From positions 240,144-304,143 of the forward strand of contig JAAFKA010000003.1 of assembly GCA_013299115.1 (NCBI GenBank): a stretch of DNA of 64,000 nucleotides, in the 5' to 3' direction. The stretch comes from Cytophagales bacterium (GTDB lineage: Bacteria; Bacteroidota; Bacteroidia; Cytophagales; Thermoflexibacteraceae). The translations under genes and the position numbers were made by a program. Shown here piece by piece: positions 53,918 to 64,000 of this stretch (positions are counted from its first letter, which is position 1; the number at the start of each line of letters is the position of its first letter). Below the pieces are notes generated by a model. The model ran no database searches, was not told the origin of the DNA, and saw only the letters and a list, made by a program, of their open reading frames with translations.

Positions 53918-54982
53918 ATGCAGCTAAAACCAACCTACGAGCCAGCCACACACCGAGAACAAGAAGTTATTTTTATTCGTTTTTTATCTACTCCTGACTT
54001 GATGAAGTGGGTAAAAACCTTAGTGGGTGTGCGGTGGAGCCAGACCCAAAAAGCATGGTATGTGTTGGATAGTCCGCAATATCGTGAAAAATTTGGTTTA
54101 CAACCTAAGCCAATTCTAAACAAAGAAAATTTGGCAACTATTCACGCCATCAACCAGCCTGCAATGACCAAATACATAGAAACTTTGCAACTCAAAGCCT
54201 ATAGTCTAAGCACTATTACAACCTATCGCAATGAATTTGGGCAGTTGTTACAACTCCTGAAAGACAAGCCCGTTGATGACCTCGATGCCGAAAAACTGCG
54301 AAGTTATTTTTTATATTGCACCAATAAATTAAAACTTTCTGAAAATACCTTACATAGTCGGTTAAATGCAGTAAAGTTTTATTTTGAACAAGTGCTAAAA
54401 CGTGAAAAGTTTTTTATGGAAATTCCAAGACCTAAAAAACCGTCTATTTTGCCCAAAGTGATAGACACGAAAGACATTAAGAAACTGTTTGCGGTTACAG
54501 CCAATTTGAAACACAACACGATGCTCAAGCTTTGCTACGGAATGGGTTTGCGAGTGAGTGAAATTGTCAACCTAAAAATAACGGACATAGACAGTCAAAG
54601 AATGCAGGTTTTGATAGAACAAGCAAAAGGCAAAAAAGACAGGTATGTAAATTTGCCTCAAAGTATTTTGGAACAGTTGCGGGAATATTACAAACAATAT
54701 AAGCCCAAAAAATATTTGTTTGAGGGGCAAATTGGAGAAAAATATAGCATACGCAGTTGTCAAAAAGTGTTTCAGGAGGCAATGCAAAAAGCAAAAATCA
54801 ACAAAACCATAGGCATACATGGACTTCGCCATAGTTTTGCTACACATTTACTTGAAAATGGTACAGATGTAAAGTTTATTCAAGAACTGCTGGGACACAA
54901 CGACATCAAAACCACTTTGCGTTATACACACGTGAGCAAGAAAAACTTAGCAGCCATCAAAAGCCCGTTGGACAGCCTGTAA
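53918..54982 (+). CDS. Tyrosine recombinase with integron-integrase-like C-terminus
   Basis: A 354-residue site-specific recombinase. The N-terminal 70 residues are a domain of the kind seen in Bacteroidota integrases (REQEVIFIRFLSTPDLMKW). A SAM-like core-binding domain follows (YSLSTITTYRNEFGQLL, LSENTLHSRLNAVKFYF), then the catalytic domain with Arg in YGMGLRVSEIVNL, Lys in AKGKKDRYVNLP, HGLRHSFATHLLENG, LLGHNDIKTTLRYTHVSK and the tyrosine in RYTHV. The final residues SKKNLAAIKSPLDSL resemble the SPLD tail that integron integrases (IntI) carry after YTHV, which Xer proteins lack. The IntI-specific insertion before HxLRH is short or absent. It lies upstream of and co-directional with the cassette array. 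Confidence 0.85.
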   Translation: MQLKPTYEPATHREQEVIFIRFLSTPDLMKWVKTLVGVRWSQTQKAWYVLDSPQYREKFGLQPKPILNKENLATIHAINQPAMTKYIETLQLKAYSLSTITTYRNEFGQLLQLLKDKPVDDLDAEKLRSYFLYCTNKLKLSENTLHSRLNAVKFYFEQVLKREKFFMEIPRPKKPSILPKVIDTKDIKKLFAVTANLKHNTMLKLCYGMGLRVSEIVNLKITDIDSQRMQVLIEQAKGKKDRYVNLPQSILEQLREYYKQYKPKKYLFEGQIGEKYSIRSCQKVFQEAMQKAKINKTIGIHGLRHSFATHLLENGTDVKFIQELLGHNDIKTTLRYTHVSKKNLAAIKSPLDSL

Positions 54983-54989
54983 CCTGTAG

Positions 54990-55014
54990 TGCGGACTTCA
55001 GTCCGCATATTTTT
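54990..55014 (+). terminator. Terminator of the recombinase gene
   Basis: TGCGGACT, TC loop, AGTCCGCA followed by TATTTTTG, eight bases after the stop codon. Confidence 0.65.
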
Positions 55015-55084
55015 GTAGCATACTGTGCATTTTACGTGCTTGCTCACAACCGCAAACAAGAATGACCTTATAACATAAATTATG

Positions 55085-55899
55085 GGTAGTGGTAACAAAA
55101 GTATGATACTTTTTTCAACAATAATTGTAATTTTTACAATAAATACATATTTTCATAGCTGCCTCATGATTTTCCAATTTTTTCGAAAACCCACAAGTTT
55201 TTCGTACTGTTCTTCTATTTCTTGACCGAATGTAAGTATTATTTCCCTCAATATCTTTGGTGTACTTTTTTCCAATTTTATGCTTATTTTTTGGCAATAT
55301 TTTCGCAAAAGCTTTCCAATTATCAGTACAAAATTCATCTACTGCAATCTTATTTGTTGCCAGTTGAGCATACAGATTTTTAATAGTTTCCTCACTCCTG
55401 TCACCAAAAACATGACCTACTATTTCACTATTTTGCGGACAATAAGCTTAGAGAAGCCATTTTTTATTATTTTTACTGCCAACGTAAGTCCAAAATTCAT
55501 CAATTTGTAAACTTTCATAATGCTGTTTTTGTGGTTTAATATCCAGATTTTCTGCATAACTGACCAATGTATGTAAAATGTAAGGTTTACTGAGCTGGTG
55601 GCAGCCCCCTTCAAAGATATTTTCTATATCTGTTATGCCTGAATTACGGCACAATGCTTTGATGACTAATTTTTTAATGACGGGATTCGCCCCATTTTTT
55701 TTATATGCTAATTGAAATTGTTTTTTACAAGTACGGCATAAAAAATTTTGAATACCAGTTGGCTTTTTGCCGTTTTTATTTATTTTTGTGCTTTGACAAT
55801 GAGGACAAGTTAGCATAATTGTATAATTTTAGAAGGTTTTACAAAGATAACTAACTCATTGTCAATTTATTAGACTATCATACTTTTTTTACCACTACC
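55085..55899. mobile_element. IS1-family insertion sequence (815 bp) with target duplication
   Basis: The terminal inverted repeats read GGTAGTGGTAACAAAAGTAT at the left (55085) and GGTAGTGGTAAAAAAAGTAT on the complement of the right end (55899), about 24 paired bases. The flanking 8 bases AAATTATG are duplicated exactly at 55077-55084 and 55900-55907. It inserted just upstream of, or at the very start of, the restriction endonuclease gene. Its transposase has an internal stop codon, so the copy is probably immobile by itself. Confidence 0.9.
55115..55816 (-). pseudogene. IS1-family transposase with in-frame stop
   Basis: The frame from ATG 55816 encodes a zinc-ribbon (CPHCQSTKINKNGKK, CRTCKKQF) and the first DDE Asp in LQIDEFWTYVGSKNNKKWLL. 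A TAA at 55448-55450 stops it at codon 123, and the same frame continues AYCPQNSEIVGHVFGDRSEE, VDEFCTDNWKAFAK (second Asp) and on to a TGA at 55115. Relatives usually have a Tyr or similar residue at the stop position (WLIYAY-like), so a single base change explains it. Without the stop it would be a 233-residue one-frame IS1 transposase. Confidence 0.85.
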
Positions 55900-55908
55900 A
55901 AATTATGA

Positions 55909-56868
55909 GAACAAAAATACAAAACCGTTATCGACAAAAACACTTTCTACTTTTACAACCCTGTTTTTCAGGACAAATACGAAAGTTATATCAACTCTCT
56001 AACCGAAACTTTACTTGTTCTTAAAAACCAAGTGGATACGCAAGGGCTTAAAAAAGAGTTGTTCGAGAACTTATTGGCTGAAAAAGAAAATGGTTTGCGT
56101 GCTTTGTTGGCTTTGACAGGTTTTGCAAACGAAAGCCTAAAAAGGTTGATTACTGTTGTGCGAGTGGCTGAAAATCAAGAACTTGCAAAATTGTTAGTCA
56201 AAGATAAGTGGTAGGAATTAGAGAAATTGGAAGTTCTGAAAGAGTGGGGAGATAGCAAATTAGAGAATTTGGTTAAGAAAAACGAGTTTTTTAGAAAAGG
56301 GCTCGTAAACCTGTTTTTTGAAGGTGCAACCATTCCATTTTTAGCCCAAACTTTGCCACTTTTTGAACTCAAAAAATTGTCAATTTCTAAACTGAAATTT
56401 GAAACTCCTGCAATGATTGATACATTGGTACGTTATAAGGAAAAGGGAAGTTATGCAGGACAAGCAGAAAATAACCCTGAATATTTAATCAAAACATTGT
56501 TAGACGAACTCAAAATTACTCACGAAAAAGGAGATTTAACAGAGTTATTCGAAAACAAGTTTAATGAAAAACGTACAATGGATTTCATTTTGCCTAACAA
56601 AGAAAATCCTCAAATTATCATAGAAAGTTCGTTTTTGGTAACAACTTCATCAGGACAAGGCGACAAGTCAAAAACTGAAGGCAATATCAAAAAACTGATA
56701 CAAGAATATTACCCCAATGCAAAATTTGTGGGTTTTGTTGATGGAATTGGTTGGTATGCAAGGCAAGGAGATTTAATGCGAATGGTTACAGCCTTTGACG
56801 AAGTTTTTACATTTCACAAAGACGAATTAGAAAGATTTAAAGAATACCTAAAACAAAATTTGAAATGA
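55909..56868 (+). pseudogene. DpnII-like type II restriction endonuclease, disrupted
   Basis: One continuous frame reads EQKYKTVIDKNTFYFYNPVFQ ... LAKLLVKDKW, then a TAG at 56212-56214, then ELEKLEVLKEWGD ... EYLKQNLK up to the TGA at 56866. The C-terminal part resembles the DpnII/MboI endonuclease family: TMDFILP and IIIESSFLVTTSSGQGDKSK stand at the D ... E-x-N/S-F-Y-GSGSK position, followed by FVGFVDGIGWYARQ. The true start is lost: an ATG at 55905 is out of frame by one base and the IS1 element lies immediately upstream. An internal start at 56227 could give a partial protein. Its stop overlaps the methylase start by four bases (ATGA), the coupling usual in restriction-modification pairs. 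Confidence 0.6.
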
Positions 56869-57920
56869 TAGAAACCTATTTGAATAAAATACATCAAGGA
56901 GATTGTTTAGCATTATTAAAACAAATTCCTGATAATTCAGTGGATATGACTTTTGCAGACCCACCTTTTAACCTCAAAAAAGGTTACAAATCCTATAAAG
57001 ATAGTTTGGCTTTGCAAGAATATTTGGATTGGTGCGAAAGTTGGATTTTGGAAATGGTGCGAATTACAAAGCCCACAGGCTCAATTTATCTGCACAATAT
57101 TCCAAAATGGCTTACTTATTATGCAGGTTTTTTGAATAAAGTAGCAGAATTTAAACATTGGATTTCATGGGATGCTCCTACTATGCCAATGGGAAAAACG
57201 TTGCAACCTAATCACTACGGAATTTTATTTTATGCCAAAGATATTAAACAACTAAAATTTTACGAAGTACGTTATCCACACAAAAGAGATAGAAAAAGTA
57301 AATATTTATCAAAAGATTATGGCGGAAAAAAGGCAATTTTACACCCTTTTGGTTCCTTGGTTTCAGACGTTTGGACTGATATTCACCGTATTAAACACAA
57401 CAAATACAGAGATGAACACCCTTGTCAGTTGCCCATTCATTTGTTGGAAAGAATAATTTTAATGTCCACAGACGAAAATGATATTGTCCTTGACCCTTTT
57501 AATGGAACAGGCACAACAGCCATTGCAGCCAAAAGATTAGGCAGACAATACATTGGTTTTGAGTTAGATAACGAATATGTAGAGATAACAAGGAGCAAAT
57601 TAGAAGAAGTCAAACCTATTTCAAAAGTGGGTAATTCTTGGGTAAGTTATTATTTAGACAAAATAGTAACTTTGCGAGATTGTGATTGGGAAGAATTAAA
57701 AGAACATTTTTATATGCCCAAAAACCCTGAAGAAATAGACCATACACCTATAGTTTTGACTTCAAAAGTTCATATTTCTGTACCAATCAAAACCGAATAT
57801 GACCCACAAAAAATGCAAATTCAAAAACTATTCGAACCCCTCGAAAATTACGAAAGTGGCGTAAAAATAAACATCGCCCAACATAGGCTTGGCGAAAGCG
57901 GGGCAGAAGTGCTAAATTGA
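56865..57920 (+). CDS. DNA methyltransferase (beta-class, N6-adenine or N4-cytosine)
   Basis: A 351-residue methylase with catalytic motif ADPPFNL near the N-terminus and the SAM-binding motif DPFNGTGTTAIAAKRLGRQYIG near residue 210. This motif order defines the beta class. A target-recognition segment lies between them, and a C-terminal extension follows residue 245. It overlaps the endonuclease frame by 4 bases, so the pair would be a type II system; with the endonuclease broken it may now be a solitary methylase. Its last 15 codons (IAQHRLGESGAEVLN) are read from the attC-like repeat, so the cassette end supplies the stop codon. Sequence specificity cannot be told. Confidence 0.88.
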   Translation: MIETYLNKIHQGDCLALLKQIPDNSVDMTFADPPFNLKKGYKSYKDSLALQEYLDWCESWILEMVRITKPTGSIYLHNIPKWLTYYAGFLNKVAEFKHWISWDAPTMPMGKTLQPNHYGILFYAKDIKQLKFYEVRYPHKRDRKSKYLSKDYGGKKAILHPFGSLVSDVWTDIHRIKHNKYRDEHPCQLPIHLLERIILMSTDENDIVLDPFNGTGTTAIAAKRLGRQYIGFELDNEYVEITRSKLEEVKPISKVGNSWVSYYLDKIVTLRDCDWEELKEHFYMPKNPEEIDHTPIVLTSKVHISVPIKTEYDPQKMQIQKLFEPLENYESGVKINIAQHRLGESGAEVLN

Positions 57921-58191
57921 ACTTTTGAATATAAATGGGGCTAAATTACTTTATTTGGGCTTTTGTGCTGAGATTTCCCCGCCTTCGCCAAGCCTTTTCC
58001 GTTGTTCAAAATGCGAGGCTGCGCCTCGCATTTTGAACAACGACTCGTTGGGTTACACTCAAAGTTGTGCGAAGACGCTTCGGCTGCGCCTCGCACTTCG
58101 CACAACTTTGAGTTTGCGAAATTGCAAAAAAAATTTCGTTGCTACGCAACGATTTTTTTTGCAACTTCGCAAACCCAACGAGTCGTTGGGT
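57876..58191 (+). repeat. attC-like composite palindromic repeat, copy 1
   Basis: Runs from GCCCAAC to GTTGGGT. Sub-site A (57876 to about 58007) has AAC, GGCTTGGCGAAAGCGGGG, a loop, CCCCGCCTTCGCCAAGCC and GTTG at 58001. Sub-site B follows as a hairpin GTTGTTCAAAATGCGAGGC with its complement, ending in AAC at 58039-58041. A stem GACTCGTTGGGTT paired with AACCCAACGAGTC then encloses two more hairpins, and the site ends with GTT. Hairpin loops are TGC, TGC and TAC. Confidence 0.85.
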
Positions 58192-58248
58192 GTCATTCTA
58201 AAAAACTACCCAAATAAAACTCTATCAAAAATAAAAATTTGCTATTTT

Positions 58249-58280
58249 TTTGCAAAAATCAAATTTTGTATTTACCTTTG
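58249..58280 (+). promoter_or_regulatory. Cassette-borne promoter of the AAA15 gene
   Basis: TTTG at 58249-58252, 20 bases, TACCTTTG at 58273-58280, 31 bases before the ATG at 58311. Confidence 0.65.
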
Positions 58281-58310
58281 CACACGAAATCAATCTAAAC
58301 ACGATTAAAA

Positions 58311-59651
58311 ATGTTGATAGAATTTAGTGTAGAAAATTTCCTTTCTTTCAAAGACTTAGCAACTTTTTCAATGGTTGCTGCAAAGTCCTTTAAGGAGTAT
58401 AAGGACAGTCATACCATAGAAATTGATAACAACTTAACTTTACTCAAGTCCGCTATCGTTTATGGAAATAATGCAAGTGGGAAAAGTAACCTATTTGAAG
58501 CAATAAACTTTATGAAAGCAACTGTTCTCAATTCATTTAGAGATGCTTTGATGGGTAATAATGAAAGAACATTTCCATTGGAAAAATTTGCTTTAAGTTC
58601 AAAATCTGAAAAAGAAACAAGTTTTTTTGAAATTTCCTTCATTCAAAATGGCGTAAAATATCGTTATGGTTTTGAATTAGACTTTGACAAAGTTGTTGCA
58701 GAGTGGTTATTTCATACAACAAGTAAAGAAGTTTATCTCTTTAAAAGAGATTTACAAAGTATTGAAATCAATAAATCTGCTTTCAAAGAGGCTATTGGTA
58801 AGGAAGAAGATGTTAAAGAAAATGTACTATTTTTATCTTATCTTGCATACCTTCAAAAATCAGAAATTTCAAATAACCTCATCAAATGGTTTGGGAATTT
58901 TAATCTTATAAACGGTATTCACGACCGTTTGCACAAACGTTACACTATTGATAAATTAAAATCTGATAATCAATTTTTTAGTTGGGTTTTACATTTTATA
59001 AAATACTTGGAAATCTCTAATCTTTCAACGACAGAGGAAGATGTTAATGAAGTTAGTTTGGAAACACTTAGGGAAAAGGGAAAAGATGAAGAAATTATCA
59101 ACCTTTTAACAAGCATACAAAAAATACAATCCAAACAGCCTAAAAGAGACCAATTAATCACTTATCACAGAAAATATGATGAAAATAATATTTTAATTGA
59201 AACTGTTCCATTTAATTTTGACCAACAAGAGTCCGAAGGAACAAAGAAACTTCTTTATTTGCTTGGTCCTTGGTATGATACATTGCAGAAAGGGAAAGTT
59301 TTAATTGTTGATGAACTTGAATCTCGTTTACATAGTCACCTAACATTGAGGTTAATAGATTTCTTTCATAGTTTTAATAGGAGTTCCGCTCAACTGATTT
59401 GTGCTGTTCACGATGTTTCTCTTTTGAATAAAGAAATTTTTAGACGAGACCAAATTTGGTTTGTTGAAAAAAATCAATTTGGCGTGTCAGAATTGACTTC
59501 ATTGGCAGATTTCAAAACAGATACAGTCAGAAATAAATCAGCATTTGATAAAAACTACTTGGAAGGTAAATATGGTGCAATCCCTTATTTCAATATTGAT
59601 AAAAAATTAAACGAACTTTTGTATGAAAAAAGGGAAACAGAACAAATTTAA
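58311..59651 (+). CDS. AAA15-type (RloA-like) ATPase
   Basis: A 446-residue SMC/ABC-like ATPase. Walker A is in VYGNNASGKSNLFEA, the signature-like motif in ESEGTKKLLYLLG, Walker B in KVLIVDELESRLHSHLT and the switch His in CAVHDVSLL. The N-terminal MLIEFSVENFLSFKD is typical of COG1106 ATPases, many of which are found in phage-defence or abortive-infection loci, usually with a nuclease partner. Here the partner position is taken by a short, broken gene without a nuclease motif that I can recognise. The gene begins 126 bases after the cassette start and has its own promoter. Confidence 0.82.
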   Translation: MLIEFSVENFLSFKDLATFSMVAAKSFKEYKDSHTIEIDNNLTLLKSAIVYGNNASGKSNLFEAINFMKATVLNSFRDALMGNNERTFPLEKFALSSKSEKETSFFEISFIQNGVKYRYGFELDFDKVVAEWLFHTTSKEVYLFKRDLQSIEINKSAFKEAIGKEEDVKENVLFLSYLAYLQKSEISNNLIKWFGNFNLINGIHDRLHKRYTIDKLKSDNQFFSWVLHFIKYLEISNLSTTEEDVNEVSLETLREKGKDEEIINLLTSIQKIQSKQPKRDQLITYHRKYDENNILIETVPFNFDQQESEGTKKLLYLLGPWYDTLQKGKVLIVDELESRLHSHLTLRLIDFFHSFNRSSAQLICAVHDVSLLNKEIFRRDQIWFVEKNQFGVSELTSLADFKTDTVRNKSAFDKNYLEGKYGAIPYFNIDKKLNELLYEKRETEQI

Positions 59652-60069
59652 GGAAAGAGAACCTTCCGCATACAAAAGGGAGATGAAAGGTCTTGAAATT
59701 CGAGAAAGTAAAAAAGAACCTTTAATAGTATTGAGTTTTAAGGATTTTGATAGAAATCAAGGACAAAGTTTTGAAGATTGGGAAGGCGAGAAATTATTAG
59801 CCCTTGCTATAAGTAAACTTTGAGAGATTTGCCAAAAAACGGTAGTTCAAGCAATAACAGAAGGTGTTATTAAACAATATACAAAAGTTAGTTTTCCACC
59901 TGAATCGAGTTTTGAACACCCTAAACACATTTTCCCAGATGTAACTTGGTGTTCAATGCACATACAAGGAAAAGAATGTGTAATTGGATATTTTGAAGAT
60001 AACATTTTTCAAGTTGTATTCTTAGACAAAAATCACGAGTTTTGGGAAACTAAGAAGAAGAATACTTAA
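59623..60069 (+). pseudogene. Conserved hypothetical protein with in-frame TGA
   Basis: The frame from ATG 59623 (29 bases inside the ATPase gene) reads KFKEREPSAYKREMKGLEIRE ... LLALAISKL. A TGA at 59821-59823 interrupts it and the same frame goes on EICQKTVVQAITEGVIK ... HPKHIFPDVTWCSMHIQGKEC, ending WETKKKNT and TAA at 60069. Relatives I recall from Bacteroidota read on through this point with an Arg, so CGA to TGA is likely. The full protein would be about 148 residues; its function is unknown. It carries no nuclease signature that I can see. Confidence 0.65.
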
Positions 60070-60086
60070 AACTAAAAAGAACGAAC

Positions 60087-60395
60087 ACCCAACATTGGCT
60101 TGGCGAAAGCGGGGCAAAAGTGCTTTATTGAACTTTGGAATATAAATGGGGATTTGTACTTATTTTGGGCTTTTGTGCTACGGATTTCCCCGCCTTCGCC
60201 AAGCCTTTTCCGTTGTTCAAAATGCGAGGCTACGCCTCGCATTTTGAACAACGACTCGTTGGGTTACACTCAAAGTTGTGCGAAATGCTTCGGCTACGCC
60301 TTCGCACAACTTTGAGTTTGCGAAATTGCAAAAAAAATTTCGTTGCTACGCAACGATTTTTTTTGCAACTTCGCAAACCCAACGAGTCGTTAGTG
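60087..60395 (+). repeat. attC-like composite palindromic repeat, copy 2
   Basis: Runs from ACCCAAC to GTTAGTG. Sub-site A ends at GTTG 60212. The hairpin 60212-60230/60234-60252 has a 19-base perfect stem around TAC. Sub-site B, from AAC 60250 to GTT 60389, has the 13-base perfect stem GACTCGTTGGGTT/AACCCAACGAGTC enclosing two hairpins, each with a TAC loop. Confidence 0.85.
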
Positions 60396-61814
60396 GCTAT
60401 TTTAAATACTTCAAACATAAAATGAAAAAAATAAAAATTATATTCATTATATTCTTACTTTTTTTAACACAATCTGTATTCGCCCAAAAAACAAAACTAA
60501 TAATTGATAGTTTGTTTTATGGACAAAACGGAATTAAACAAAAATACCCAAACGTAGGACTTAGTATTGGTATTTTAAAAAACAATAAAACATTTTTTTA
60601 TCAATTTGGAAATAAAAATAAAGAGACAGATGAACCAATTACTAAGCATACTATTTTTGAAATAGGTTCTGCTACCAAAACCTTTACTGGTTTACTATTA
60701 AGCATAGAAATAGCAAATAACAGAATAAATAAATCAGAATTTATTGATGCTTTTTTTAATTCTAATATCCTACACAATAATATAGTAAACAAAGTAAAAA
60801 TTACTGATTTGGCAAGTCATCAATCTGGGTTACCAAACTTATCAAATGATAAGTATTTAAATGATTTGGTGCAAAAAGATGCAACTAATCCTTTTCAATT
60901 TGTGGATATAAACTATTTATTAGATATTTTAATTAAGACTGATACACTTATCAATTTTAGAAAGTATCAATATAATAACTACACATTCTCTCTTTTAGGT
61001 TATATTCTTGCAAAAAAAAACCAACTTAGTTATGATGAATTATTACAAAAAAATATCCTAACTCCAATGAGTATGAGATATACATCATTAAATAAAGCAA
61101 AAACAAGTAATGTGGCAGGACTGTATGATGAAGATGGAAATTCAAAAAAAAGCATAATTTTAGGAGATGTTAAGCCCGCAGGCGGACTTTGTTCAAATGC
61201 GGTTGATATGTTAAAATATTTAAAATTACAACTTGGGGTTTCAAAAACCAACTTACAAAGTGCAGTGCGAATTTCTCAAGAAACATACTACACAGATGAT
61301 AAACATAAAGTAAGTTTGGGCTGGGATATTAAGAATGGATATTTGCAAAAAGATGGAGATACATTCGGAAATTCTTGTCTTTTACTCTTTGACAAAAAAA
61401 ACCAAATAGGAATTGTAGTTTTATCAAATCATCAAAATGCAGATATTGTTAATTGTGTAGTAGATTATATTTATAAAAAATTAGTTGATAAAAATGAAAA
61501 CAGCCACTAACATTGGCTTGGCAAAAGCGGGGCAAAAGTGCTTTATTGAACTTTGGAATATAATTGGGGCTAAACTACTTTATTTGGGCTTTTGTGCTAA
61601 GATTTCCCCGCCTTCGCCAAGCCTTTTCCGTTGTTCAAAATGCGAGGCGTAGCCTCGCATTTTGAACAACGACTCGTTGGGTTACACTCAAAGTTGTGCG
61701 AAATGCTTCGGCTACGCCTTCGCACTTCGCACAACTTTGAGTTTGCGAAATTGCAAAAAAAATTTCGTTGCTACGCAACGATTTTTTTTGCAACTTCGCA
61801 AACCCAACGAGTCG
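60390..61814 (+). mobile_element. Gene cassette 3 (serine hydrolase)
   Basis: Its ends GTTAGTGGCTATTTT (60389 on) and AAAACAGCCACTAAC (ending 61511) are complementary at 14 of 15 positions. It holds one gene, whose stop codon TAA is part of the terminal CACTAAC. No promoter fits between the cassette start and the ATG, so expression probably depends on upstream transcription. Confidence 0.75.
60422..61510 (+). CDS. Exported beta-lactamase-like serine hydrolase
   Basis: A 362-residue protein with signal peptide MKKIKIIFIIFLLFLTQSVFAQ. It has the class-C beta-lactamase/esterase fold signatures: nucleophile in IGSATKTFTGLLL (S-x-x-K) and YQYNNYTFSLLGYIL (Y-x-N). A KPAGGLCSNAVDMLKYLKLQLG segment is typical of family members that act as peptidases or esterases. 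The third motif (HTG-like) is weak (GDTFGNS). True beta-lactam resistance cannot be inferred. ATG 60422 is used; the open frame extends upstream into the repeat only because the palindrome lacks stops. It is the sole gene of its cassette. Confidence 0.82.
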   Translation: MKKIKIIFIIFLLFLTQSVFAQKTKLIIDSLFYGQNGIKQKYPNVGLSIGILKNNKTFFYQFGNKNKETDEPITKHTIFEIGSATKTFTGLLLSIEIANNRINKSEFIDAFFNSNILHNNIVNKVKITDLASHQSGLPNLSNDKYLNDLVQKDATNPFQFVDINYLLDILIKTDTLINFRKYQYNNYTFSLLGYILAKKNQLSYDELLQKNILTPMSMRYTSLNKAKTSNVAGLYDEDGNSKKSIILGDVKPAGGLCSNAVDMLKYLKLQLGVSKTNLQSAVRISQETYYTDDKHKVSLGWDIKNGYLQKDGDTFGNSCLLLFDKKNQIGIVVLSNHQNADIVNCVVDYIYKKLVDKNENSH

Positions 61815-61820
61815 TTGGTA
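61505..61820 (+). repeat. attC-like composite palindromic repeat, copy 3
   Basis: Runs from CACTAAC to GTTGGTA. It has the same architecture as copies 1 and 2. The first hairpin's loop reads GTA (61649-61651) inside an unchanged stem, the reverse complement of the TAC loop in copy 2. Confidence 0.85.
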
Positions 61821-61825
61821 GCCAT

Positions 61826-61856
61826 TTTGGAAATACGGAAAAAATGACTAATTTTG
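61826..61856 (+). promoter_or_regulatory. Cassette-borne promoter of the cassette-4 operon
   Basis: TTTG at 61826-61829, exactly 19 bases, TAATTTTG at 61849-61856. The -33 element lies within the cassette's complementary terminus. Confidence 0.7.
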
Positions 61857-61876
61857 TGAAAATAAATTTATAACAT

Positions 61877-63112
61877 ATGTTTAAAATTTTCAGAATATCA
61901 AATTTCAGAACACATCTAAATACTGAGTTAAAATTGCAAGATTTAACTTTAGTAATAGGCTCTAATAATTCAGGCAAGAGCAATCTACTTGCAGGTTTAA
62001 GTTTTTTCTCTAAACTTGTTAGCAATGCTTTTCCTGATAGTGACAAAGATAAGACTGTTAAAAACTCTTATTATTTCGCAAATAGGCATAGCTTGAGTAA
62101 TAATAATACGCCTATCATTTTTAACTGTGAGTGGCATAAAGATGATATACAAATCACTTATCAACTTGAATTGTATTGTTTTGATAAGGAAAAGGTAGGT
62201 TGTAAAGAACGACTAACATTAAACGATAAAAAATATGAAAATGGATTTTCTGAACAAACAAATGAATTATTGCTAAGAACTATAATACGACAGCAAGAAC
62301 CAAGTAGCGAAATAGTAGAGTTAATTGACATTTTTTTTAGGTCTTTAGCCTTTTTGTACTATTATAATTTTCAACCCTCAATGCTAAAAGGAGAATCCTT
62401 TGCTACTATTTATGTAAATGGAAGTCCTAAACCTGCTTTAAAAAGGGATTTCATACGTGAGTTTAGAGATGGAAAACGTCCAAATATTGCCAGCGAAATA
62501 GGCAAAGAAGGAACAAATTTCCAAGAACTCATTAAATATGTTAAAGAAGAAGAAAGCGAAACATATAACAAATTCTTAGGTTTTCTCAAAAGATTTGAAG
62601 ACAGTTTTGTAGGTATTCACGTTGATAGAGGACAAGTAAAGTGGCAATTTGATATGGGTAACTCTAACTTTCCTTTTTTTGAACCCGATAAAATTTCAGA
62701 CGGTTTAGCCAAAGCAGCAGCGGTCGCACTATTATGTGCTATGAAACGTCCCCCATCAGTCATTATGATTGAAGAAGTTGAAAATGGAATAAACCAAAAA
62801 AACTTGGCTGAATTTCTTAAATGGTTGGTTGGAACTTCTGAAAATGGCAATAAAACACAATTCATTCTTACTTCGCATAGCCCTTCGGTTATTAGAGAGT
62901 TTGCAGATAGAATTGACCGTGTATATAATGTTCATCTTAAAAAGAAAAAAGGTTATGTAAGTGAAGTTACAAATCTCAATGAAGCAATTAAACCCCTTGT
63001 TAGATTTGGTTCTATAAAAGAAGAAGAAGTTACTGAACAAGAAGGTGTTTATCACATAAGACCTCACGCCTTAACAGAACTATTTTATAATGGTGTTTTA
63101 GCAGAATTATAA
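61877..63112 (+). CDS. AAA ATPase (AAA15/AAA21, OLD-like), cassette 4
   Basis: A 411-residue ABC/SMC-like ATPase. Walker A is in LVIGSNNSGKSNLLAGL, the signature region in ISDGLAKAAAVALLCAM, Walker B in PSVIMIEEVENGINQKN, and the switch His in ILTSHSPSVIREFAD. The N-terminal FKIFRISNFRTHLN is typical of OLD/RecF-like ATPases. It lacks a C-terminal TOPRIM domain, which is instead found as a separate protein encoded 16 bases downstream. Two-gene ATPase-plus-TOPRIM units of this sort (for example Gabija-, PARIS- and OLD-like systems) are anti-phage modules; this specific pair is not one I can name. Confidence 0.82.
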   Translation: MFKIFRISNFRTHLNTELKLQDLTLVIGSNNSGKSNLLAGLSFFSKLVSNAFPDSDKDKTVKNSYYFANRHSLSNNNTPIIFNCEWHKDDIQITYQLELYCFDKEKVGCKERLTLNDKKYENGFSEQTNELLLRTIIRQQEPSSEIVELIDIFFRSLAFLYYYNFQPSMLKGESFATIYVNGSPKPALKRDFIREFRDGKRPNIASEIGKEGTNFQELIKYVKEEESETYNKFLGFLKRFEDSFVGIHVDRGQVKWQFDMGNSNFPFFEPDKISDGLAKAAAVALLCAMKRPPSVIMIEEVENGINQKNLAEFLKWLVGTSENGNKTQFILTSHSPSVIREFADRIDRVYNVHLKKKKGYVSEVTNLNEAIKPLVRFGSIKEEEVTEQEGVYHIRPHALTELFYNGVLAEL

Positions 63113-63128
63113 CCAGCTATCGATATTT

Positions 63129-63863
63129 ATGAATCCACAAGTTGCTATCATAAGGGACGGTTATAGTGATTTTCTTGTCCTAAAGAAGTTTATTGCTTCC
63201 GTTTTTCAGCATCACCATTTTGTTGAATTAGAAGATGATAATTTTTTTCAATTTGAAAATCTAAACATTACAAATTCCCTTTCAGAATACATTTCTAAAT
63301 CACATCTTGAAAAATATTCTTTGTTTGGTGATTTTGCCCTTGATTTTAGAAGGCAAATTAGTCAAATTCTATTTACTGCTATTGGTAAATTTGCCAAAGA
63401 CAAGGAAACTGACTTGACAAACAAAGATATATTGATATTGAATGGTGATGCTGAAAGAATATTAGGCTCAAAACAAAAATATTTTGAGCAGTGGTCATAC
63501 TCAATCAACAGTGTTATATGGCTTGCGATTGAGGAGTTTTACAATAAAATGGTAGAACAAGGTTATAATTACTTGCAACTACCTCTTATTTTACCTTTAA
63601 TACTTTATCCAAGTTCTGAAATTTTAGTTGCTTCTTGTATGGACGATTTTGATAAGACAAATTACAGAGATTTTGAAGCCAAGCCAGCACTTAAGCAAAA
63701 GGTTTATGAAACAGACAGCATACCACAAGCACTTGAAAGTGGATATTTGAAAGAAGTTTTAGATGCTTTTGTCGTTCCTGATAATTTGACTAAGGTCTAT
63801 AAAGACTTACCTGAAATAAGAAAATTTATGCAAATCCTTACATTTGAAGTGCGAAAACAATAA
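63129..63863 (+). CDS. TOPRIM-like partner protein, cassette 4
   Basis: A 244-residue protein. The N-terminus VAIIRDGYSDFLVLKKFI has the shape of a TOPRIM first strand and helix, but with Asp where the usual Glu stands (xxVEGxSD). It continues with NKDILILNGDAERILG, which could supply the D-x-D position, and ASCMDDFDKTNYRDFE. It follows the ATPase after 16 bases. Putative nuclease or effector partner of the ATPase; the assignment rests on weak motif similarity and context. It is also compatible with DUF4276/DUF4435-type proteins. Confidence 0.5.
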   Translation: MNPQVAIIRDGYSDFLVLKKFIASVFQHHHFVELEDDNFFQFENLNITNSLSEYISKSHLEKYSLFGDFALDFRRQISQILFTAIGKFAKDKETDLTNKDILILNGDAERILGSKQKYFEQWSYSINSVIWLAIEEFYNKMVEQGYNYLQLPLILPLILYPSSEILVASCMDDFDKTNYRDFEAKPALKQKVYETDSIPQALESGYLKEVLDAFVVPDNLTKVYKDLPEIRKFMQILTFEVRKQ

Positions 63864-63870
63864 AAACGGC

Positions 63871-64000
63871 TACCAACATTGGCTTGGCGAAAGCGGGGCA
63901 AAAGTGCTTATTTGAACTTTAGAATATAATTGGGGTTTTGTACTTTATTTGGGCTTTTGTGCTAAGATTTCCCCGCCTTCGCCAAGCCTTTTCCGTTGTG
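63871..64000 (+). repeat. attC-like repeat, copy 4 (sub-site A, cut by window end)
   Basis: TACCAAC, ATTGGCTTGGCGAAAGC and on to CCCCGCCTTCGCCAAGCC and TTTTCCGTTGTG. Copies 1-3 continue GTTGTTC at this place; copy 4 has a G as the last visible base, so a different sequence, possibly the next gene cassette, may start here. Confidence 0.8.

What the first reader, a model, noticed from the sequence alone, without database searches (positions are those of the whole stretch)
53918..64000. Integron-like cassette array with very large attC-like sites in a Bacteroidota chromosome
Seen: a tyrosine recombinase, then four copies of a highly palindromic repeat of about 310 bp at 57876, 60087, 61505 and 63871 (last one cut). 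They separate functionally unrelated same-strand gene modules (R-M pair, AAA15 unit, serine hydrolase, AAA plus TOPRIM-like). Each repeat begins with a cassette-specific ...AAC and ends with GTT.... Known: integron cassettes are promoter-poor single genes ending in an attC site with AAC/GTT core triplets and paired L boxes. Inferred: this is an integron-like system, or a CALIN-type array if the recombinase is unrelated, with attC-like sites two to three times the usual length.
Basis: partly seen in the sequence, partly recalled or inferred. Interest (0 to 1): 0.93.

Follow-up and report, generated by a model that had tools for sequence, protein, structure and literature searches.

The report
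Integron lacking the IntI hallmark domain
This end of a bacterial contig (from the same order as Runella) holds an integron-style row of gene cassettes, in which each complete cassette's start mirrors its own end, next to a recombinase that lacks the domain used to define integron integrases and that likely moves the cassettes, which would make it a natural test of how integrons arose.

Summary
(1) Each 310-bp repeat is an ordinary-sized attC (132-bp core; a model built from 36 such cores finds sites in 167 of 291 sampled genomes of this order) plus a 177-184 nt hairpin module that starts and ends at GTT. The module also sits alone at an attI in a relative, so I read it as a gene-less mini-cassette inserted behind the attC. 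Each complete cassette's start is the reverse complement of its own end (9-10 nt, 3 of 3 here; 53 of 73 pairs in the pooled set, 2.7% when shuffled). (2) The adjacent recombinase is not IntI: the IntI-specific insert of about 42 residues is missing here and in the other 45 family members measured. Yet in 23 of 24 recombinase loci with a modelled site downstream, an attI lies just after the gene; the window, whose attI was not found, is the exception. Two near-identical genomes differ by a block of cassettes with breakpoints at, or within 6 nt of, GTT cores. In 18 of 20 selected genomes an SSB gene flanks the recombinase. I propose an I2-less integron lineage, likely acting on folded bottom-strand DNA. 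Recombination is untested.

The parts
53918..54982 (+). Tyrosine recombinase, 354 aa from ATG (short N-terminal domain, core-binding domain, catalytic domain with invariant R212, K237, H301, R304, H327, Y336); no IntI insert
55085..55899 (.). IS1-family insertion (AAATTATG at both ends); the SSB gene and attI that follow the recombinase in the genome's second locus were not found here
56032..56868 (+). Cassette 1: BanI/DpnII-like restriction-enzyme ORF, interrupted by an in-frame TAG at 56212-56214
56865..57920 (+). Cassette 1: N6/N4 DNA methyltransferase; its 3' end overlaps the attC core
57876..58007 (+). attC core, copy 1 (core GTT at 58001)
58001..58187 (+). Hairpin module behind copy 1, read as a gene-less mini-cassette: core GTT 58001 to distal GTT 58185
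58185..58193 (+). Start of cassette 2 (GTTGGGTGT), reverse complement of its end 60085-60093
58311..59651 (+). Cassette 2: AAA_21 / AbiLi-like ATPase (followed by an ORF from 59623 with an in-frame stop)
60087..60218 (+). attC core, copy 2
60212..60391 (+). Hairpin module behind copy 2 (distal GTT 60389)
60389..60398 (+). Start of cassette 3 (GTTAGTGGCT), reverse complement of its end 61502-61511
60422..61510 (+). Cassette 3: serine hydrolase of the PF00144 fold (119.7 bits against a cut-off of 415 for class C beta-lactamase, so not called one)
61505..61636 (+). attC core, copy 3
61630..61816 (+). Hairpin module behind copy 3 (distal GTT 61814)
61814..61823 (+). Start of cassette 4 (GTTGGTAGCC), reverse complement of its end 63868-63877
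61877..63112 (+). Cassette 4: AAA_21/AAA_15 ATPase
63129..63863 (+). Cassette 4: 244-aa partner protein without a Pfam or NCBIfam match at E <= 0.001
63871..64000 (+). attC core, copy 4 (cut by the contig end)

Best explanation
The window holds an integron-type cassette array whose cassettes are likely captured, excised and reshuffled at G^TT cores by the neighbouring recombinase, which lacks the IntI-specific (I2) insert. Shown by sequence: attC-type sites with covarying stems, cassettes whose two ends are complementary, attI beside related recombinases, a natural replacement of cassettes between two close genomes at GTT cores, and an SSB gene beside many of the recombinases. Inferred: the recombinase is the catalyst, the substrate is the folded bottom strand of attC, the tail-less SSB manages the single strand, and the HARP-like N-terminal domain may stand in for I2. 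The hairpin module that doubles the repeats' length is likely a gene-less mini-cassette: it begins and ends at GTT, its first 12-19 nt mirror its own ...AAC, and one copy sits at an attI without any attC core. In this genome the window platform has no SSB or attI that I could find, while a second locus (contig C33) keeps both but has a broken recombinase.
For: Own-end complementarity >= 8 nt: 44 of 66 adjacent pairs, 49 of 65 in a second, overlapping set, 53 of 73 in the pooled set against 2.7% for shuffled partners, same-site control 6 of 106. Covariation in 36 sites: 93 both-side changes against 31.8 +/- 4.5 shuffled, 0 of 500. attI: 42-791 bp after the recombinase stop in 23 of 24 chosen loci; GCGT at -14 in 16 of 22 aligned attI against 19 of 2115 GTT[AG] sites of the same loci, hits included. 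Strand bias: bottom strand more stable in 44 of 49; first mismatch is a bottom-strand G.T wobble in 38 of 49 and a top-strand one in 0. Exchange: L160 and L161, 98.96% identical over 11.3 kb with identical recombinases, part 6 nt into the GTT at attI and rejoin exactly at CGTT of an attC. No IntI over cut-off in 13 of 13 genomes of the order searched. 16 of 16 genomes with a recombinase >= 60% identical have attC-type sites. SSB beside the recombinase in 18 of 20 selected genomes; 19 of 19 complete ones lack the DDLPF tail, 3 of 3 SSBs from elsewhere have it. Module as mini-cassette.
Against: No recombination was measured. 20 of 73 pairs lack complementarity (missed sites or decay). Of four loci with weaker, distant or divergent sites left out, only one (L177) shows an attI-like match near the recombinase; L171, L175 and L124 do not. 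Sites occur without this recombinase (73 of 167 genomes) and the reverse (24 of 118). The site model also rings in 27 of 85 genomes with an IntI match, so the site type does not identify the enzyme. No SSB was found beside the recombinase in G035, G357, the window, or the held stretches of L160, L161, L163-L179, L191-L193 and L195, so the link marks a subset. HARP likeness is borderline: Pfam 24.8 against 25 in a longer homologue, none in the window's own protein, Foldseek rank 1 but E 0.57, not listed by VIA-align. The mini-cassette reading rests on one attI copy of 36. The window platform looks decayed.
Confidence: 0.85

Rival explanations
1. The array is an ordinary integron cassette cluster moved in trans by a true IntI elsewhere, and the nearby Xer-like recombinase is a bystander.
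For: No attI was found in the window; attC+ genomes without the recombinase exist; the site model also rings in 27 of 85 genomes with an IntI match. My control with other recombinases is weak: 5 XerC/D-type loci show no site, but with flanks of about 1.5 kb neither does the window's own recombinase.
Against: 0 of 13 genomes of the order searched have an IntI over cut-off, and none of the 12 own-order genomes listed matched; 23 of 24 chosen recombinase loci are followed by attI and array.
Confidence: 0.06
2. The recombinase acts on double-stranded sites like ordinary Xer enzymes; the hairpin structure serves something else, such as transcription termination.
For: It lacks I2, which published work ties to single-strand recombination (abstract and passages of PMC7790495); attI looks like a plain double-stranded site, with an ACGCA-like half-site upstream of TGCGT in 10 of 22.
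Against: Each cassette matches its own two ends over about 10 nt and then pairs on by bottom-strand wobble, which is useful only if the ends fold back on one another; an SSB gene is linked to many of the recombinases; the core stem covaries.
Confidence: 0.1
3. The hairpin module is a built-in arm of the attC (a multi-armed 310-bp site whose distal GTT is the cleaved one), not a separate unit.
For: The next cassette's complement lies at the distal GTT in the 9 extended pairs; the whole copy folds as an R stem with three arms; one site of G001 has lost the core GTT (ATT) but keeps the distal one.
Against: One copy sits at an attI with no core; the module has its own start-to-end complementarity; core-only sites stand in the same genomes.
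Confidence: 0.25
4. The whole repeats are a palindromic mobile element (MITE or REP type) inserted between genes.
For: Near-identical palindromes of one length.
Against: The left flank of a copy matches the reverse complement of the right flank of the previous copy, not its own right flank (same-site control 6 of 106); the core is found in 167 of 291 genomes and stands in cassette arrays in the loci examined.
Confidence: 0.02

Closest known systems
IntI integrons (mobile and sedentary chromosomal)
   Same: attI, mostly same-strand cassettes, attC with R and L boxes and AAC/GTT cores, own-end complementarity, bottom-strand bias, variable cargo
   Different: Recombinase lacks the IntI insert of about 42 residues, is co-directional with the array in the loci, is often flanked by a tail-less SSB gene, and has a short N-terminal domain; R boxes pair over about 10 nt and on
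XerA/XerC/D/XerH recombinases
   Different: Tied to attI and attC arrays; dif sites were not looked for
CALIN (attC clusters lacking an integrase)
   Same: Sites on contigs C3, C18 and C34 of this genome lie on contigs where no such recombinase was found
   Different: The window cluster has a recombinase 2.9 kb upstream of its first site
Gene-less or promoter cassettes, and IS1111-attC or group IIC-attC introns (all recalled)
   Same: Units that sit at integron core sites without an ordinary gene
   Different: The module here is 177-184 nt of hairpins flush with GTT, with no evident coding content
SMARCAL1 HARP domain (PF07443)
   Same: W-...-K-x-W motif; predicted beta-beta-alpha-beta-beta-alpha order; Foldseek ranks 1 and 2
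   Different: Every score is at or under significance

Membership tests
IntI integron | Integrase with the IntI-specific additional (I2) domain | tested here: not met
   G[LM]R to HxxRH spacing 133 in 10 of 10 IntI loci (the 10 best-scoring), 91-97 in 46 of 50 family proteins (window included; 4 not measurable), 91 in the window; TIGR02249 196.9 bits against 265, profile 181-240 skipped
IntI integron | Tyrosine recombinase with RKHRH/Y active site | tested here: met
   R212, K237, H301, R304, H327, Y336 invariant in 22 aligned proteins; PF00589 E 4e-41
IntI integron | attI site next to the integrase | tested here: met
   For the family: 23 of 24 chosen loci, conserved TGCGTATAT-like box. Not found for the window copy; the genome's second locus has it
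IntI integron | attC sites with R''-L''-L'-R' architecture and covarying stem | tested here: met
IntI integron | Cassette start complementary to its own end | tested here: met
   53 of 73 against 2.7%; 3 of 3 complete cassettes of the window
IntI integron | Cassette gain or loss with breakpoints at G^TT | tested here: met
   One pair of genomes, L160 and L161
IntI integron | Recombination through the single-stranded bottom strand of attC | not testable with these tools
   Only folding bias: 44 of 49
IntI integron | SOS (LexA) control of the integrase | not tested
   No promoter analysis was made
CALIN | No integrase near the attC cluster | tested here: not met
   Recombinase at 53918-54982, of a family tied to attI and arrays
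HARP domain (N-terminal domain) | Match to PF07443 over its gathering score, or the solved HARP fold | tested here: inconclusive
   24.8 against 25 bits in L071, 20.7 in L072, none for the window's N-terminal 67 residues; Foldseek E 0.57; not listed by VIA-align
MITE/REP element (whole repeat) | Flanks of one copy duplicated; dispersal independent of genes | tested here: not met
   Same-site control 6 of 106

The most novel reading that the evidence does not exclude
A second way to run an integron: a large, overlooked lineage in Bacteroidota whose integrases do without I2 and recombine folded single-stranded attC with the help, in many members, of a dedicated tail-less SSB and one or two HARP-like hairpin-gripping domains, and whose arrays breed gene-less hairpin mini-cassettes. 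It would be a living form of the pre-I2 integron, or a convergent one.
Probability: 0.48. Interest if true: 0.95.

Novelty: new variant of a known kind. Interest (0 to 1): 0.88.

Why it matters
Published work states that integron integrases gained single-strand recombination by acquiring I2 and names the lack of intermediates as an obstacle (abstract and passages of PMC7790495; passages of PMC4792948). IntegronFinder tells IntI from other recombinases by that domain (passages of PMC9668308 and PMC9024848), so systems like this would be scored as integrase-less or missed. SSB is discussed as a host factor in integrons (passages of PMC8946536); here an SSB gene is often part of the platform. attC-type sites in 87 of 115 sampled genera of one order point to a large cassette pool with many restriction and abortive-infection genes. 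It makes the origin of integrons testable with natural enzymes.

Tried and rejected
The Rfam search gave only three chance-level matches to one miRNA family on the hairpins (E 0.098).

Selection and dropped rows: one search used 112 sites over 25 bits from the loci. Model R1 was trained on 36 hand-picked sites of 130-134 bp, so hits on those are not independent. The site list was copied without L175:17515, L034, L035, L123:6378, L128:8854 and the reverse-strand echoes; one search also left out L162 (same genome as L126) and L242:5383 (same site as in L127). The 24 loci were those with a modelled site downstream on the recombinase's strand; loci without one were not counted, and L171, L175, L177 and L124 were tested only. 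The 21 genomes were picked by hand, 20 of them because they carry the recombinase. Genome scans score at most 11 candidate sites a genome, so site counts are lower bounds. Handle sets were copied by hand.
Full report
What is there. The window is the right end of contig C23. A tyrosine recombinase (53918-54982) is followed by an IS1-family insertion and four cassettes, each closed by a repeat. The repeat is an attC core of 132 bp (RYYYAAC ... L'' ... L' ... CCGTT), followed in the three complete copies by 177-184 nt of hairpins ending in a second GTT.

Why it is an integron-type array. In integrons the two halves of the R stem come from the two ends of the same cassette (recalled). Here cassette 2 starts GTTGGGTGT and ends ACACCCAAC; cassette 3 starts GTTAGTGGCT and ends AGCCACTAAC; cassette 4 starts GTTGGTAGCC and ends GGCTACCAAC. 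In the pooled set 53 of 73 adjacent site pairs show this over at least 8 nt, against 2.7% for shuffled partners and 6 of 106 for the two sides of one site. The first mismatch after that is a G.T wobble on the bottom strand in 38 of 49 pairs and on the top strand in none; the bottom strand folds better in 44 of 49. The L stem covaries strongly in 36 sites from 27 loci.

Spread. A covariance model of the core finds sites in 167 of 291 sampled genomes of the order (87 of 115 genera) and in 129 of 296 sampled genomes of the phylum.

The recombinase. It is not IntI: against IntI4 (2a3v) the alignment leaves 65 IntI residues opposite 22; the motif spacing is 133 in 10 of 10 IntI examined and 91-97 in 46 of 50 family proteins, 4 not measurable. 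IntI over cut-off occurs in 84 of 296 phylum genomes, only one of them marked as of the window's class. In 23 of 24 chosen recombinase loci the first cassette's end has its complement 42-791 bp after the recombinase stop, preceded by a TGCGTATAT-like box (GCGT at -14 in 16 of 22 aligned). That is an attI. The window is the exception; the genome's second locus (C33, recombinase broken) has the box and a cassette start. Among four loci left out at first, one more shows an attI-like match and three do not.

Natural experiment. Two MAGs (Candidatus Kapaibacterium UWPOB_KAPA1, L160; Ignavibacteria UBA2373, L161) share 98.96% of 11.3 kb up to attI and an identical recombinase. They part 6 nt after the start of the attI GTT (both first cassettes begin GTTAGC), carry different cassettes, and become identical again exactly at CGTT of an attC that closes different cassettes. 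Cassettes between these points were therefore replaced at GTT cores. This is one pair.

The hairpin module. Its first 12-19 nt, from GTT on, are the reverse complement of its own ...AAC at nt 38-47 (4 genome types; the copy at attI has a mismatch there), a second, forked hairpin follows flush or nearly so, then GTT. Architecture is kept while sequence differs between G000/G001, G002 and G013. In extended pairs the next cassette's complement lies at the distal GTT. Of 36 copies in the held loci 28 adjoin an attC core, 6 lie at a contig end, one partial copy has no core, and one in G013 (L214:9036) sits exactly at the GTT of an attI that is identical in 67 of 70 nt to that genome's other attI. 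I therefore read it as a gene-less mini-cassette that has multiplied behind attCs, rather than an arm of a giant attC. With so few core-free copies this stays a probability (about 0.7). The whole 310-bp copy does fold as an R stem with three arms, and one G001 site has lost its core GTT, so the long-attC reading is not excluded.

SSB. In 18 of 20 hand-picked recombinase-bearing genomes a single-strand-binding protein gene lies directly before or after the recombinase (family models over cut-off). All 19 complete ones seen lack the acidic DDLPF tail that three SSBs from other places have. It was not found beside the more distant recombinases of L160, L161, L163-L179, L191-L193 and L195, nor in G035, G357 or the window. 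In IntI integrons SSB is described as a host factor that melts folded attC until the integrase captures it (passages of PMC8946536). That a tail-less SSB coats the strand without recruiting host partners is inference.

N-terminal domain. The first 60 or so residues are predicted as beta-beta-alpha-beta-beta-alpha (pLDDT 89). In five longer homologues the motif occurs twice, and one touches the Pfam HARP threshold (24.8 of 25). The title of a reference seen in PMC9371921 says that the HARP domain dictates annealing-helicase activity of SMARCAL1. This is a lead for what replaces I2, no more.

Cargo. 100 of 110 cassette ORFs point with the array. Of 99 scanned proteins the most frequent Pfam hits are PDDEXK_2, AAA_21 and GmrSD_N (5 each); PADLOC finds AbiL-, restriction- and other defence-type matches. 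Window cassette 2 is AbiLi-like (E 8.6e-86).

Prior art. Nine searches on integrons of the open-access library showed no description of I2-less integrons or of integrase-linked SSB in Bacteroidota; I saw listings and the passages cited, not whole papers, and most subscription journals are not in it. IntegronFinder 2.0 names Salinibacter ruber as the complete integron found in Bacteroidetes proper (passage, PMC9024848). PMC8138268 (passage) notes that the IntI insertion is not fully conserved within its integron-like subgroup, so I2-poor relatives have been glimpsed.

Limits. No activity was measured; several counts share loci; the co-occurrence of sites and recombinase (94 both, 24 recombinase only, 73 sites only, 100 neither, of 291) is not corrected for phylogeny; no control outside the phylum was run.

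Noticed in passing
L147 (G000:C33:30000-40420): Second platform in the same genome: recombinase copy (92% identical over its last 194 residues) broken by a stop, but SSB gene and attI with a cassette start intact; complementary in its damage to the window platform.
   Followed up: partly
L214:9036-9205 (G013:C67): The hairpin module sits directly at an attI without an attC core; G013's only matching recombinase lies on another contig (C47).
   Followed up: partly
window 56212-56214 and the ORF from 59623: The restriction enzyme of cassette 1 and the second gene of cassette 2 each carry an in-frame stop (TAG, TGA).
   Followed up: partly
window 55085-55899: IS1-family element with AAATTATG at both ends; its longest transposase ORF covers only the first 116 of 199 positions of the family model.
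   Followed up: partly
L181-L190 (G459:C1:1393023-1557583): Sites of this kind are scattered over about 165 kb of one contig, with the recombinase and a dense run of sites at about 1472-1484 kb.
   Followed up: partly
L124 and L140 (G031), L113, L117, L118 (G013): Different cassettes share the same 300-700 bp just before their attC at about 95-98% identity, so attC plus an upstream segment may move as a unit.
   Followed up: no
L124:3475-4350 (G031:C48): A more distant recombinase (37% identity) lies divergently from its array; it falls beside IntI in the tree on a flagged long branch.
   Followed up: no
L032:2222-3619 (G000:C3): A long ORF that looks like a transposase by eye lies where an extended attC is cut off on contig C3.
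   Followed up: no
L033 and other arrays: PDDEXK_2 (Rpn-type) nucleases recur as cassette genes (5 of 99 scanned).
   Followed up: no
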